Positions 64 through 27,925 of a stretch of DNA of 29,459 bases are shown one piece after another (the stretch's first letter is position 1; each line of letters starts with the position of its first letter). Source of the stretch: a virus. The notes under the pieces were generated by a model that did no database searches, had not been told where the DNA came from, and worked only from the letters and a program-made list of their open reading frames with translations. The position numbers and the translations under genes were made by a program. The stretch covers positions 1 through 29,459 of IMG/VR virus record IMGVR_UViG_3300023276_000798; one strand, 5' to 3'.

Positions 64-89
64 AAAAGCCTGCTTCGTGCAGGCTTTTT
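64..89. terminator. Bidirectional Rho-independent terminator
   Basis: A 10-bp stem (64-73 with 79-88) with loop TTCGT is followed by T residues on the plus strand and by TTTT on the minus strand. It can end the rightward transcript of the preceding tail gene and the leftward rtcB-tRNA transcript. Confidence 0.85.
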
Positions 90-93
90 GTTT

Positions 94-170
94 TGGTCGG
101 AGAGGCAGGATTTGAACCTGCGACCGCTCGGCTCCAAACCGACTACGCTACCAGACTGCGCTACTCTCCG
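94..170 (-). tRNA. tRNA-Pro (anticodon UGG), CCA end encoded
   Basis: The minus strand folds as a full cloverleaf of 77 nt: a 7-bp acceptor stem CGGAGAG/CTCTCCG, D arm with GCGC/GCGT, anticodon loop TTTGGAG between GTCGG and CCGAG, T arm GCAGG-TTCAAAT-CCTGC, discriminator A73 and an encoded CCA. The anticodon UGG, the C1-G72 first pair and A73 are the proline pattern seen in bacterial tRNA-Pro. Two departures are visible: position 37 is A where bacterial tRNA-Pro normally has G, and the 27-43 pair is a G-G mismatch. The gene begins 19 nt after the rtcB stop on the same strand, so both probably share a transcript. The encoded CCA and intact ends argue for a functional tRNA rather than an att-site remnant. 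Confidence 0.9.
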
Positions 171-189
171 TAATTCAGTTACTATACAC

Positions 190-1290
190 TCACCCCTTTA
201 TATTTACAATAGGCGTTATGTGCGCAACAACTTCGACTAAATCTTTTTGAAGCTCCATTACATCAAATATATTTTTATACGCGTCAGGCGATTCATCAAG
301 CGTTGAATGCTCAACCTTAGCTGTTACGCCTTTTAACTGCTTCTTGAAAATATCAATATCGAGTTCACGCTTTGCTTGCTTGCGCCCCATTACCCTGCCA
401 GCTCCGTGAGAAGATGAGCACAGGGAATCTTCGCACCCCTTGCCCTTTACGATAAATGAGCCATCGCGCATATTCCCAGGGATAACGCCCATCATTCCAT
501 CTTCGGCGTGTGTAGCACCTTTGCGGTGAATCCACAAGCCTTCTTTTTCTTCCGCGTGGTTGTGATTTCTATTTATCAAATCTGAATAATCAACGTAATA
601 TTCAAGTTCAGGTATATTTGCAGCTTCACAAATGCAAGATATCACACGTTGCATTATTTCCTTTCTATTTGCCAGTGCGTAATTTAACGCCCAGTTCAAA
701 TCCTTAATGTAATCTTTTCCGTTTTGCGATTCAACATCAAATCCCCAATGTCCGTCCTTAGCCTTACCTTCGGGGTTTGCAATCTTCATGTAATGAGTAG
801 CAACACCATGCCCAACACCGCGAGAGCCACAATGAATAACAACCCAAACATGGTCGTGTTCATCAGCGCCAATCTCTATAAAGTGATTGCCACCTCCTAA
901 TGATCCAATAGCTAAGTCATGTTTTTTATATTCGGCAATCTTCATCCCTTCATCTGTTAACCCGTCAAGTGAGTAATCCAATGAATTGCCGTTTATTTTA
1001 AAACCAACTGGCACGCGCTCATAAATCAGATCAAATATCTTTTGTGAATTGTCGCGCACATCATCGGCTTTTACGCCATCTATTTTCATTGCACACATGC
1101 CACAGCCAATATCATAGCCAACCCATGAAGGTACAACCACACCCTTTGTCGCAACGACAGCGCCTATAGGTAGCGCGTAACCAGTGTGCGCATCAGGCAT
1201 TAAAGCACCGTAAACTACAAAATCCAATCCCATTGCTGATTCAAATTGCTCTAGCGCCGTATCTTCTAAAACTTCTGCGTATATTTTCAC
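190..1290 (-). CDS. rtcB: RtcB-family RNA ligase (3'-phosphate/5'-OH)
   Basis: RtcB joins RNA ends carrying 2',3'-cyclic phosphate or 3'-phosphate to 5'-OH ends using GTP and Mn2+, through a histidine-GMP intermediate, and repairs or splices RNA in the cytoplasm. The 366-residue protein has the whole family signature: MPDAHTG (31-37), the metal motif GYDIGCGM with D60 and C63, GGGNHFIE (132-139), IHCGSRGVGH (152-161), NHNHAE (242-247), HRKGA (255-259), PGNM (271-274) and SSHGAGRVMGR (293-303), where H295 is the expected guanylated residue. Nothing essential appears lost, and the length suits a compact RtcB. The start is GTG at 1290 with AAGGAG seven bases upstream. It runs opposite to the tail genes, has its own promoter and is followed by tRNA-Pro. 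A role in repairing tRNA cut by host anticodon nucleases is inferred from that pairing. Confidence 0.95.
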   Translation of the reverse strand: MKIYAEVLEDTALEQFESAMGLDFVVYGALMPDAHTGYALPIGAVVATKGVVVPSWVGYDIGCGMCAMKIDGVKADDVRDNSQKIFDLIYERVPVGFKINGNSLDYSLDGLTDEGMKIAEYKKHDLAIGSLGGGNHFIEIGADEHDHVWVVIHCGSRGVGHGVATHYMKIANPEGKAKDGHWGFDVESQNGKDYIKDLNWALNYALANRKEIMQRVISCICEAANIPELEYYVDYSDLINRNHNHAEEKEGLWIHRKGATHAEDGMMGVIPGNMRDGSFIVKGKGCEDSLCSSSHGAGRVMGRKQAKRELDIDIFKKQLKGVTAKVEHSTLDESPDAYKNIFDVMELQKDLVEVVAHITPIVNIKG

Positions 1291-1322
1291 TTTAAAACTC
1301 CTTATTAAATTAATTTATACAA

Positions 1323-1351
1323 ACAATAGCCAATAACTTTACATCTGTCAA
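1323..1351 (-). promoter_or_regulatory. Sigma70-like promoter for rtcB and tRNA-Pro
   Basis: On the minus strand TTGACA (1351-1346), a 17-bp spacer and TATTGT (1328-1323) lie about 35 bp upstream of the rtcB GTG. The -35 is a perfect consensus. The spacer begins GATGTAAAGTT, resembling motifs at other promoters in this window. Confidence 0.65.
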
Positions 1352-1366
1352 CAAATAACCCCCACT

Positions 1367-1395
1367 TTCCCATTCCCTACAATAAAAAGTATAAT
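1367..1395 (+). promoter_or_regulatory. Promoter for the tail chaperone/tape measure operon
   Basis: TTCCCA, 17 bp, TATAAT (1390-1395) lies 33 bp upstream of the ATG at 1429. It is divergent from the rtcB promoter and would restart tail-gene transcription after the terminator at 64-89. The -10 is perfect, the -35 matches 4 of 6. Confidence 0.5.
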
Positions 1396-1428: not shown

Positions 1429-2013
1429 ATGCAGCAAACACAGATAGGAGAGTTCGCACTAGAAATAGACGATCAAGAATTTCTCTTAACGCCTACATTA
1501 AAAAACATGGCAAAGCTTGCCAATTCAACCGACTTGCTAGACATTTATAGAACTATTCATGATCGCTTTATCAGTGATTATGTGCGTATAGAATTGGGGC
1601 GAGAAATATTAAAAGCCTGCTCAGATAATCCCGATATTGATAAATATCTAATTAAGTGCAAAAACAAAGAGCCACAGCCAACAGAAAACACTATTTCAAT
1701 TAATGACCAGGTGATAGTTGCGGCGGCCCTTATGCGGCATGGTATCGCGGGAGTTAACCGCCCGGAGTACGCAGGCAGCAAAGAGAAAACAAAAGCGGCT
1801 GATAAGTTTGACGTTAATAAGATTGTAGCCGATGCGATGATCCACTTCGGAATAAGCAAGGGTGAAGCGCTTAATCTAACCATGAGTGAATTTTGTTATT
1901 TATTGGCAGCAAAATTCCCACCAGAGAGCGCAACAAAACAAAATAATTCACCGTCAATTGACGATCACAAAGCCGCTATGAAGGCGCTAATGGAGAAGAA
2001 CAACAATGGCTGA
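1429..2013 (+). CDS. Probable tail assembly chaperone
   Basis: Tail assembly chaperones coat the tape measure protein before tube polymerisation and are lost from the virion. This 194-residue soluble protein lies immediately upstream of the tape measure gene, the standard place (lambda G/GT). Its C-terminal part, around HFGISKGEALNLTMSEFCYL, resembles the FGxSxxExxxLTxxEF pattern of tail assembly chaperones in gene transfer agents and many siphophages; this is my reading, without an alignment. The gene seems to encode one continuous protein. The only in-frame A-AAA-AAC heptamer (1500-1506) lies near the start and leads to an early stop, so no lambda-type frameshift is evident. The ATG follows GAGG by about seven bases, and the stop overlaps the next start by 8 bp. 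Confidence 0.6.
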   Translation: MQQTQIGEFALEIDDQEFLLTPTLKNMAKLANSTDLLDIYRTIHDRFISDYVRIELGREILKACSDNPDIDKYLIKCKNKEPQPTENTISINDQVIVAAALMRHGIAGVNRPEYAGSKEKTKAADKFDVNKIVADAMIHFGISKGEALNLTMSEFCYLLAAKFPPESATKQNNSPSIDDHKAAMKALMEKNNNG

Positions 2014-3898
2014 AAATATAGGAGGCATTAGTTGGACAGTGGATGCCGATACAAGCGGGGCGGTCAACTCTACAAAGCAACTTGATACGCAAGTAAACAA
2101 AGTTGAAAAAACGCTAACCAAGCTCGATACAAAAACCACTAAAACAGCTAAGGCTGTTAATAAAGGCATAGGTGGCATGGGCCGAACAGCCGGCCAAGCC
2201 GGTATACAGATGCAGCAATTTATCGGGCAGGTTCAAGGCGGGCAGAATGTAATGCTAGCTTTATCTTCGCAGGCTGCCGATTTAGGCTTTGTGCTTGGTG
2301 CTCCATTAGTCGGTGCAGTCGTTGGTATCGCCGCATCATTGGGTGGCATGTTATTACCTGCATTAATGAACGGCAAAACAGGGCTCGAAAACGTACAGAA
2401 AGCTGTTGAAAACGTAAAAGCAGCCATGACACTTGGTGCTGGTGGTGTTATTGAATACACAGCAGAGATGAAAAAGCTTAAACAGATATCTGACGCACTA
2501 ACAGAAATTAAAATAGCAAGCCTGATAGCAGAGCAAAACGAAGCTTTTAAAACTGGAATCAAAGAAACCATTAAGCTAATGGACGATGCTCGGGATCGCT
2601 TTGCATTGGGTCAATTGTTCAAAGATGGATCTAAAGAGGCGATAGCTTCATTCGTTGCGCTTAATGAGTCCATTGAGGCGTTAAAACTAGATCCAACAGC
2701 CGACAGCATTAACAATGTTGAACAGGCTTTACTTGGTGCCTCGCGCGCAGGAATTAACAGTACAAAACAAGGGCGCGCTTTAACTGAGCAAATGGGCGGC
2801 TTAATTGCTGAATACAAGCTTGGTAAAATATCTATAGAGGCACTGCAAAAGGCGCTAAAAGATACTGATATTGTCATTGATGACTCAAGTAAAAGCACGA
2901 ACAGATATGAGAAAGTAATAGCAAACTTAAAGCAGCAAATGAAGATTGCTGGGCTTGAGTTTAAAGGGCTTACAAAAGACGCCAGAATTGCCAACGCTAC
3001 ATTTAAAGCAAAAGAAATACTAGGCGGCGATGCAACAGTAGATCAGATAAACCGCGTAGCGTGGGCAATGCTGAATGTGGCAGAAGCTCAGGAAAACGTT
3101 AAAGATAGAAAAACAGCCATTACCACAACAGAGTCAATAATCAGCCGTGGAGACTCGCCAGAAGACGAACGTGAAAAAGAGCGTGCATCATTGGAAGCGT
3201 CTAGAGCTGACGGTTTAATCTCAGCCAAGAAATACCAAGACGCTTTAAATCAAATTGATCAGGAAGGGTTGAAAGCAAAAGAGCAAATTGCAGCAATGAC
3301 ACTTGGATCGTTCAGTAACTCTTTTGATCAGCTAGCCAACGTTTTAAAGGAATCCGAAGGTGAGCAATCAAGCGCTTACAAAGCAATGTTTGTTCTCGCA
3401 AAAACTTTTGCTATTGCGCAATCGGGCCTTAACTTAGCTCTTGCAATATCAAACGCTATGGCGTCAGGCCCATTTCCGTACAATTTGGCAGCAATGGCAA
3501 CAGTTGCAGCTGCTGGTGTTGGTGTTGTTGCGGCGGTAGCTGGCTCCACTTACAGCGGGCGCGAAAATGGCGGATCGGTTATCGGCGGCCAAACTTATGA
3601 GGTAGGCGAGAAAAACAAACCAGAGCTACTAATGATACCCGGTAACAATGGGCGCGTGATGTCTAACGCGGATATGAAATCAGCGGTAGGAGGCGGCAAC
3701 GTCGGCGGTAACGTTTCGGTAAATCTATATGGTGCGCCTGCTGGTACTAGCGTAGAATCAAGACGCGACCCAATAACAGAAGAGAGAGTTATTGATATTG
3801 TAATTAATCAAATGACCAACTCAAACAGTGAAGGCCGCAGAGGTATGCAAAATAACTCAAATGTGCATGGTGTTCTAAACGGCAGAAGGAGATCATAA
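2006..3898 (+). CDS. Tail tape measure protein
   Basis: This 630-residue protein would set tail length and later help DNA pass the inner membrane. The N-terminal region (residues 1-60) is polar, rich in K, T and V, and coiled-coil-like. A glycine/alanine-rich hydrophobic stretch follows at about 75-125, then long helical segments. A second hydrophobic region lies at about 465-515, and the C-terminal GGSVIGGQTYEVGEKNKPEL is the GG...YxVGExxPEL box found at the end of many tape measure proteins of the lambda H/TMP_2 type. Using the general 0.15 nm per residue rule, the tail would be about 90-95 nm, at the short end for siphophages. The ATG sits 9-12 bp after GGAG, inside the end of the chaperone gene, suggesting translational coupling. 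Confidence 0.9.
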   Translation: MAENIGGISWTVDADTSGAVNSTKQLDTQVNKVEKTLTKLDTKTTKTAKAVNKGIGGMGRTAGQAGIQMQQFIGQVQGGQNVMLALSSQAADLGFVLGAPLVGAVVGIAASLGGMLLPALMNGKTGLENVQKAVENVKAAMTLGAGGVIEYTAEMKKLKQISDALTEIKIASLIAEQNEAFKTGIKETIKLMDDARDRFALGQLFKDGSKEAIASFVALNESIEALKLDPTADSINNVEQALLGASRAGINSTKQGRALTEQMGGLIAEYKLGKISIEALQKALKDTDIVIDDSSKSTNRYEKVIANLKQQMKIAGLEFKGLTKDARIANATFKAKEILGGDATVDQINRVAWAMLNVAEAQENVKDRKTAITTTESIISRGDSPEDEREKERASLEASRADGLISAKKYQDALNQIDQEGLKAKEQIAAMTLGSFSNSFDQLANVLKESEGEQSSAYKAMFVLAKTFAIAQSGLNLALAISNAMASGPFPYNLAAMATVAAAGVGVVAAVAGSTYSGRENGGSVIGGQTYEVGEKNKPELLMIPGNNGRVMSNADMKSAVGGGNVGGNVSVNLYGAPAGTSVESRRDPITEERVIDIVINQMTNSNSEGRRGMQNNSNVHGVLNGRRRS

Positions 3899-26948: not shown

Positions 26949-27092
26949 ATGAAAAAAGAAACTGTATTGGAAATATTTGAGGAATCACTTTCAGCTGGCG
27001 GTCAATTCTTTGAGATAGATGATATAGCAGCTGAATTCAGATTGAAGATAGAGGAAGCTTACAAAAAGCAGAAAGAGGAACGTGGAAAATGA
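26949..27092 (+). CDS. Small hypothetical protein (47 aa)
   Basis: A short acidic/helical protein, MKKETVLEIFEESLSAGGQF... ending KKQKEERGK. ATG 26949 lies seven bases after GAGG; an in-frame ATG two codons earlier is too close to the ribosome site. The stop overlaps the start of the PP-loop ATPase gene (ATGA), indicating coupled translation. The constant pairing would suit a small partner of the ATPase, which is inference. Confidence 0.6.
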   Translation: MKKETVLEIFEESLSAGGQFFEIDDIAAEFRLKIEEAYKKQKEERGK

Positions 27093-27925
27093 AATATGTT
27101 ATTTGTTACTCAGGCGGGAAATCATCAAGTGAATGTGCGTTATCAGTTGCCAAAAAATACGGTGCTGAAAATGTAATTCTATTAAACCATGATATTAACG
27201 GGCATGTTGAGCAGGCATGCACTAAGCAGTTGAAGAAAGATGTGGCTGATCATCTTGGGCTTGAGATTACTTATGCGAACCATAACCGATGGGATGAAGT
27301 GACGCCAGTAAGTGTCTGTGTTGATGCTGAAGCATGGAAAGTTGGACGCGGCCAGATACTTTGCACAAACCGACTAAAAACCGAACCGTTCAAGCAGTGG
27401 CTAAAACAAAACGATCCTGACGGTGAGAACATTTATGTTTACGGTATGGACTTAAACGAGCAATCACGTATCACTCGCCGCTCTCAGATTATGGGGCAGA
27501 TGGGATATAAAACACTGTTTCCCATGACTTGGCCAGAAGATGAGATTGTGCGCCTTGAGTCTATCGGTATTAAACCTGGCGCAGTTTACGAAACGTTTAA
27601 TCATAGTAATTGCATCGGGTGCCTTAAAGCAGGTTGGCAGCATTGGTATATTGTCTACTGTACTCGTCGTGATGTGTGGGATGAAGCTAAAGAAGGCGAG
27701 GATGAGATAGGTTATGCAATACATAAAGATAAGGACGGCCCTGTTTATCTTGAGGAAAAAGAAGCTTTGTTTAATTCGATGATAACAGCTGGGGTTGTAC
27801 CGACTGAAAAAATAAAGCCGCAAACATTCTGGGCGCAAGCTAAAAGAGCCATTAAACAGCATGAAGCTGAATTATCAGAACTGGCAGAGCATGATAAAGG
27901 GGTTTGTTTAGACTGTTCGCTGTAG
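27089..27925 (+). CDS. PP-loop ATPase, PAPS-reductase/DndC-like superfamily
   Basis: A 278-residue protein of the N-type ATP pyrophosphatase fold: YSGGKSS (7-13) is the PP-loop, followed by NHDINGH (33-39) and CTNRLKTEPF (92-101), a C-x-x-R-x-K-x-x-P motif found in PAPS reductase-like proteins. CIGCLKAGW (175-183) and the C-terminal CLDC (273-276) add two CxxC pairs that could hold a metal or Fe-S cluster. Relatives adenylate or reduce sulfur substrates, or modify tRNA or DNA (DndC). Phage members have no agreed role. It has its own promoter and terminator, as expected for an accessory gene. A nucleic-acid thiolation function is possible but unproven. Confidence 0.75.
   Translation: MKYVICYSGGKSSSECALSVAKKYGAENVILLNHDINGHVEQACTKQLKKDVADHLGLEITYANHNRWDEVTPVSVCVDAEAWKVGRGQILCTNRLKTEPFKQWLKQNDPDGENIYVYGMDLNEQSRITRRSQIMGQMGYKTLFPMTWPEDEIVRLESIGIKPGAVYETFNHSNCIGCLKAGWQHWYIVYCTRRDVWDEAKEGEDEIGYAIHKDKDGPVYLEEKEALFNSMITAGVVPTEKIKPQTFWAQAKRAIKQHEAELSELAEHDKGVCLDCSL

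What the first reader, a model, noticed from the sequence alone, without database searches (positions are those of the whole stretch)
64..1351. Leftward RtcB RNA-ligase plus tRNA-Pro cassette inserted in the tail operon
An intact rtcB gene and a tRNA-Pro(UGG), 19 nt apart on the same strand, have their own TTGACA-17-TATTGT promoter and share a bidirectional terminator. They sit between a probable major tail protein gene and the tail chaperone gene, on the opposite strand. This is the design of a moron. RtcB reseals 3'-phosphate/5'-OH breaks, the ends left by host tRNA anticodon nucleases, and the linked tRNA may replace a cut one. A phage-encoded repair-plus-replacement pair against tRNA-targeting defence is inferred.
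Basis: partly seen in the sequence, partly recalled or inferred. Interest (0 to 1): 0.75.

Follow-up and report, generated by a model that had tools for sequence, protein, structure and literature searches.

The report
Phage RNA-repair gene paired with tRNA-Pro
A virus of bacteria carries an RNA-mending enzyme gene right next to a spare proline tRNA gene, and unrelated viruses have made this same pairing many times, which suggests that bacteria attack this particular tRNA and the viruses answer by mending or replacing it.

Summary
The window (a 29.5-kb fragment of a siphovirus-like phage) has an intact leftward rtcB (190-1290) and, 19 nt on, a well-formed tRNA-Pro(UGG) (94-170), between a small tail gene and a DUF6246 gene. 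The site is a cargo slot: relatives carry other leftward genes there, or nothing. The TTGACA-17-TATTGT promoter recurs over unrelated cargo, so it belongs to the slot rather than to the cassette.

The pairing is not chance. In 136 non-redundant rtcB-bearing viral loci, 13 of 28 tRNAs within 300 bp of rtcB are tRNA-Pro(UGG), against 7 of 167 beyond 2 kb (P=2.6e-8). On the RtcB tree the pairing needs 17 changes (at least 10 on well-supported branches), with the tRNA upstream, downstream, on the other strand, or (L118) nested inside the rtcB frame. Linked tRNAs mostly carry A37 (14 of 16); sampled host genes carry G37. But A37 is common in phage tRNA-Pro anyway, so it is not specific to rtcB.

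Best reading: a repair-plus-replacement module against damage to host tRNA-Pro(UGG). The linkage is shown; the mechanism is inferred. The general idea was published for Cluster K1 mycobacteriophages (RtcB with tRNA-Trp). Most rtcB phages lack an adjacent tRNA-Pro.

The parts
190..1290 (-). rtcB, RtcB-type RNA ligase, 366 aa, active-site residues intact
94..170 (-). tRNA-Pro, anticodon UGG, loop 32-38 TTTGGAG (A37), CCA encoded
64..88 (.). terminator hairpin AAAAGCCTGC-TTCGT-GCAGGCTTTT at the junction of the tail operon and the leftward cassette
   Evidence: hairpins at the same place in L021 and L044/L045
1323..1351 (-). leftward slot promoter TTGACA-17-TATTGT
   Evidence: same element in L041 and L046 (TATTGT) and L021 (TAAAAT), each with different cargo
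1390..1395 (+). -10 TATAAT of the rightward promoter that restarts the tail operon, 39 nt before the DUF6246 start
   Evidence: TATAAT 34-40 nt before the start codon in L021, L041, L046, L034 and L044
1..44 (+). 3' end of the small tail gene that follows the major tail protein (left edge of the slot)
   Evidence: C-terminus like the 114-aa ORFs of L021 and L029; gene order in L036 and L038
1429..2013 (+). DUF6246 / PHROG 791 protein (right edge of the slot; chaperone-like position before the tape measure)
2006..3898 (+). tape measure protein

Best explanation
A counter-damage cassette carried as exchangeable cargo in a tail-operon slot. The leftward slot promoter makes one transcript with rtcB followed by tRNA-Pro(UGG). 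RtcB reseals 2',3'-cyclic-phosphate/5'-OH breaks made by a host (or rival-phage) RNase that hits tRNA-Pro(UGG). The phage tRNA replaces molecules lost to cleavage, and its altered anticodon loop (A37 in place of the host's m1G37 site) may make it a poorer target. Shown: intact genes, their arrangement, the slot, and the recurrent specific linkage of rtcB with tRNA-Pro(UGG) in many separate phage lineages. Inferred: co-transcription, RtcB activity, tRNA-Pro as the damaged RNA, A37 as evasion, and the nuclease itself.
For: Within 300 bp of rtcB 13 of 28 tRNAs are Pro(UGG), beyond 2 kb 7 of 167; P=2.6e-8, and 1.2e-7 without the window. A second set, drawn after the prediction was written down, repeats it: 3 of 9 against 4 of 91, P=0.015. 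Loci with a single tRNA: 8 of 13 within 1 kb are Pro(UGG), 0 of 14 farther away, P=6e-4. The pairing needs 17 changes on the RtcB tree, at least 10 on starred branches, with different geometry each time. Linked tRNAs score 50-68 bits and are often the only strong tRNA of the contig. RtcB is a credible active enzyme. A37 in 14 of 16 linked tRNAs; in sampled Pseudomonadota chromosomes the T32 form carries G37 in all matches except two that do not look like tRNAs. VapC-mt11 is a known nuclease that cuts tRNA-Pro after residue 37 and needs the GG at 36-37 (PMC6459853). Phage tRNAs with loop changes at nuclease sites are described in PMC10264068.
Against: 108 of 136 rtcB loci have no tRNA within 1 kb, and none of 16 isolate phages examined has tRNA-Pro within 1 kb of rtcB. 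A37 is not rtcB-specific: unlinked phage tRNA-Pro with C32 are mostly A37 (61:19), with T32 mostly G37 (94:11). VapC enzymes are understood to leave 5'-P/3'-OH ends, which RtcB cannot seal, so VapC-mt11 cannot be the nuclease answered by RtcB, and its G37A test substrate was still cut one base away. Cas13a leaves tRNA-Pro unaffected. No nuclease with suitable ends and tRNA-Pro specificity was found in the papers searched.
Confidence: 0.5

Rival explanations
1. RtcB mends another RNA (rRNA, mRNA or several tRNAs), and the tRNA-Pro supports translation for its own reasons; the two travel together as a translation-rescue cargo without a shared substrate.
For: RtcB2-PrfH protects cells from colicin E3, which cuts 16S rRNA (PMC9223846); phage RtcBs usually stand without a tRNA.
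Against: It does not explain why the adjacent tRNA is so often Pro(UGG) in separate lineages. The protein scores well below the RtcB2 model cut-off (145 against 272).
Confidence: 0.22
2. The tRNA-Pro is an ordinary codon supplement and rtcB an ordinary moron; both sit in a slot that collects small cargo.
For: CCA is the commonest proline codon in the window (41%); the slot does collect unrelated cargo.
Against: Single tRNAs of rtcB phages that lie away from rtcB are never Pro(UGG) in this sample (0 of 14); the linkage recurs outside this slot and genome type.
Confidence: 0.15
3. The tRNA acts on RtcB: it is a substrate, decoy or regulator of the ligase or of its transcript, for example processing of the tRNA sets rtcB mRNA level.
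For: Same strand in 16 of 17 pairs and spacing often under 60 nt; in L118 the tRNA lies inside the rtcB frame, so its excision would cut the mRNA.
Against: Upstream, downstream, nested and opposite-strand layouts all occur, which fits no single regulatory design; the tRNAs keep full tRNA structure.
Confidence: 0.08
4. The tRNA is a remnant of an attachment site or a chance neighbour.
For: tRNA genes are frequent attachment sites (general knowledge).
Against: No tyrosine integrase over cut-off in the window or in nine paired contigs; the tRNAs are complete; chance is excluded.
Confidence: 0.05

Closest known systems
RtcB + tRNA-Trp of Cluster K1 mycobacteriophages (PMC3203893)
   Same: Phage with one tRNA and an RtcB; the authors already speculated that RtcB protects against host tRNA cleavage.
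   Different: tRNA-Trp instead of tRNA-Pro; the two genes lie far apart in the genome; no recurrent linkage test.
T4 Pnkp-Rnl1 repair of PrrC-cut tRNA-Lys
   Same: Phage-encoded repair of an anticodon-loop break (general knowledge; mentioned in PMC10264068).
   Different: Unrelated enzymes with different end chemistry (kinase/phosphatase plus ATP ligase); not tRNA-Pro.
Nuclease-resistant phage tRNAs (PMC10264068)
   Same: Phage tRNAs carry anticodon-loop changes at nuclease sites; here A37.
   Different: There without RtcB linkage and not for a single tRNA-Pro; here loop changes are observed but resistance is untested.
RtcB2-PrfH operon (PMC9223846)
   Same: RtcB-family ligase used against ribotoxin damage.
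   Different: Partner is a release factor, substrate rRNA; the window protein scores below that model's cut-off.

Membership tests
RtcB RNA ligase (PF01139) | Profile match over the curated cut-off | tested here: met
   304 bits against 27
RtcB RNA ligase (PF01139) | Metal ligands and guanylated histidine conserved | tested here: met
   aligned with 1uc2: D60, C63, N135, H136, H153, H255, H295
RtcB RNA ligase (PF01139) | RtcB fold | tested here: met
   model pLDDT 94; TM 0.85 to 4dwq
RtcB RNA ligase (PF01139) | 3'-P (or cyclic phosphate)/5'-OH ligase activity | not testable with these tools
   needs an enzyme assay
RtcB2-PrfH system | Match to the release_rtcB (TIGR03073) equivalog over cut-off | tested here: not met
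   145 bits against 271.8
RtcB2-PrfH system | prfH neighbour | tested here: not met
   no release-factor domain in the 27 window ORFs scanned with Pfam, which include the immediate neighbours on the right; the record is a fragment
tRNA-Pro | Canonical tRNA structure, anticodon UGG, C1-G72 and A73 | tested here: met
   sequence
Phage moron | Extra gene between conserved genes, opposite strand, own promoter and terminator, absent in relatives | tested here: met
   expression itself not tested
Anti-tRNase repair-plus-replacement module | Specific linkage of ligase and tRNA beyond chance in relatives | tested here: met
Anti-tRNase repair-plus-replacement module | The tRNA is cut by a host nuclease and the module protects the phage | not testable with these tools
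   needs infection experiments
Anti-tRNase repair-plus-replacement module | Linked tRNA has loop changes specific to rtcB linkage | tested here: inconclusive
   A37 enriched within the T32 class (5:1 against 11:94, P=2e-4) but common in unlinked C32 tRNA-Pro (61:19)

The most novel reading that the evidence does not exclude
A widespread, so far undescribed host defence (or inter-phage weapon) cuts tRNA-Pro(UGG) in the anticodon loop leaving cyclic-phosphate/5'-OH ends, and phages have answered it many times independently by joining an RtcB ligase gene and an A37 tRNA-Pro(UGG) into one module, in one case nesting the tRNA inside the ligase gene.
Probability: 0.35. Interest if true: 0.85.

Novelty: new variant of a known kind. 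Interest (0 to 1): 0.62.

Why it matters
Why phages carry tRNAs and RNA ligases has long been debated. A recurrent, tRNA-specific pairing of RtcB with tRNA-Pro(UGG) points to one substrate and turns a general idea into a direct test: look for a nuclease that cuts tRNA-Pro in hosts of paired phages. It also shows that phage tRNA-Pro often departs from the host's usual G37, the TrmD site that guards the reading frame.

Tried and rejected
A37 as a mark unique to rtcB-linked tRNAs: the first control (T32 tRNAs only) suggested it (P=3e-7), but a second scan for C32 tRNAs showed that A37 is common in unlinked phage tRNA-Pro, so the claim was cut back. Attachment-site origin: no integrase. RtcB2-PrfH membership: below cut-off. 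Cas13a as the nuclease: tRNA-Pro unaffected. VapC-mt11 as the nuclease answered by RtcB: end chemistry does not fit (general knowledge), although it shows that G36-G37 of tRNA-Pro can be a cleavage determinant. MazF-mt9: its cut in tRNA-Pro14(GGG) is in the D-loop and seen only in vitro. rtcB elsewhere in contigs with unlinked A37 tRNA-Pro: none in 11 records, mostly fragments. No near DNA match in isolate phages.

Full report
Observation. The window holds a 366-codon leftward rtcB at 190-1290 and a 77-nt tRNA-Pro(UGG) at 94-170 on the same strand with 19 nt between them. The enzyme matches PF01139 and PHROG 1075 strongly, keeps the residues that bind metals and GMP in solved RtcBs, and its model is confident and RtcB-like. 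The tRNA folds canonically, encodes CCA, and has C1-G72/A73 and anticodon UGG. Its loop is UUUGGAG, with A at position 37.

The slot. The cassette lies between a small tail gene and a DUF6246 gene in front of the tape measure gene. By comparison with annotated Vibrio phages the small gene follows the major tail protein. In relatives found by their tail proteins the same gap holds a 147-aa leftward ORF (L021), five small leftward ORFs (L029, the same contig as L041), a 66-aa ORF (Vibrio phage pYD21-A), short leftward ORFs (L046), or no cargo (L035, L036, L042, L044/L045). None of the other cargo has a known function. The leftward promoter TTGACA-17-TATTGT recurs in L041 and L046, and as TTGACA-17-TAAAAT in L021, above different cargo, 78-95 nt from the DUF6246 start. 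A rightward TATAAT lies 34-40 nt before that start in L021, L041, L046, L034 and L044 as in the window (39 nt). So the promoters belong to the slot, and the cassette is one of several exchangeable morons.

Linkage test. rtcB is common in phages: 655 of 50,697 isolate records. 136 non-redundant rtcB-bearing viral loci were collected by three scans and their tRNAs called. Within 300 bp of rtcB, 13 of 28 tRNAs are Pro(UGG); beyond 2 kb, 7 of 167 (P=2.6e-8; 1.2e-7 without the window). The anticodon was fixed in advance by the window. After the first set the prediction was written down and repeated on 51 new loci (3 of 9 against 4 of 91, P=0.015). To remove the effect of tRNA arrays, only loci with a single tRNA were compared: 8 of 13 within 1 kb are Pro(UGG), 0 of 14 farther away (P=6e-4). 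On an RtcB tree of 157 sequences the pairing is scattered (17 changes, at least 10 forced by starred branches), so the events are largely separate; counts of changes cannot tell gains from losses. Layouts differ: downstream, upstream, opposite strand, and in L118 a 63.7-bit tRNA-Pro inside the rtcB reading frame. The linked tRNAs score well, and in contigs of 32 and 45 kb (L118, L066) the paired tRNA is the only one. Limits: 108 of 136 loci have no tRNA within 1 kb, and none of 16 isolate phages examined has tRNA-Pro within 1 kb of rtcB; Corynebacterium phage Dina has tRNA-Trp 538 bp from rtcB.

Position 37. Linked tRNA-Pro(UGG) have A37 in 14 of 16 cases. In sampled Pseudomonadota chromosomes the T32 pattern gave more than 100 matches in 93 of 150 genomes, all G37 except two that do not look like tRNAs; the C32 pattern gave one match in 60 genomes, also not tRNA-like by eye. 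In phage tRNA-Pro without rtcB, T32 forms are mostly G37 (94:11) but C32 forms mostly A37 (61:19). Within the T32 class linked tRNAs are enriched for A37 (5:1, P=2e-4; stratified P=9e-5), on small numbers. A37 is therefore a frequent phage departure from the host, more frequent next to rtcB, and not a mark of rtcB linkage as such. The host sample covers one phylum only, and the true hosts of these phages are unknown.

Mechanism. The most economical reading is repair plus replacement of tRNA-Pro(UGG). RtcB seals 3'-P or cyclic-P/5'-OH ends (established for the family), which metal-independent RNases leave. G37 is the TrmD methylation site of tRNA-Pro (seen for V. cholerae tRNA-Pro(UGG), PMC12588516). 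One known toxin, VapC-mt11, cuts tRNA-Pro after residue 37 and depends on G36-G37 (PMC6459853). It shows that this site can be a nuclease determinant, but its products are not RtcB substrates, and a G37A substrate with a second GG was still cut one base away. No nuclease that fits both parts is known to me or was found.

Relation to known work. Cluster K1 mycobacteriophages carry RtcB and tRNA-Trp, and protection from host tRNA cleavage was proposed there (PMC3203893). Jumbo phages carry RtcB beside tRNA sets (PMC7824862). Loop-mutated phage tRNAs are described in PMC10264068. A paper search for RtcB with tRNA-Pro and phage gave no report of the pairing (open-licence papers only). What is added here is the specific, recurrent, tight pairing with tRNA-Pro(UGG).

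Noticed in passing
L118:10328-10402: A full tRNA-Pro(UGG) gene (63.7 bits, A37) lies inside the rtcB reading frame, in frame and on the sense strand, filling a variable loop of the enzyme.
   Followed up: partly
L017:4522-6687: rtcB is split into two pieces by about 1.07 kb between residues 134 and 135 of the window protein; intron or intein not determined.
   Followed up: no
L065:6167-6241: A tRNA with anticodon UUA (reads UAA; 54 bits) lies near rtcB and tRNA-Pro: a possible ochre suppressor.
   Followed up: no
L306:2898-3600 and L378:5250-5600: tRNA-Leu(UAG) near rtcB also carries A37 where bacteria have the TrmD site G37; many phage tRNA-Leu(UAG) do.
   Followed up: partly
L035:5664-7016, L036:6285-7004, L037:6523-7008: A second leftward cargo slot between the DUF1833-position gene and the NlpC/P60 gene; in L036 it holds a DNA methylase.
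   Followed up: no
window 27089-27925: PAPS-reductase-like protein with a weak match to SspD (PADLOC, 1.2e-8); possibly a phosphorothioation-like or sulphur-related gene.
   Followed up: no
L447:4181-4255 (Corynebacterium phage Dina): tRNA-Trp 538 bp downstream of rtcB in a 44-kb phage, echoing the rtcB plus tRNA-Trp content of Cluster K1 phages.
   Followed up: no
window 1-29459: The record looks like a fragment: tail, early and terminase genes were found but no portal or capsid gene was recognised, and both ends cut genes.
   Followed up: no
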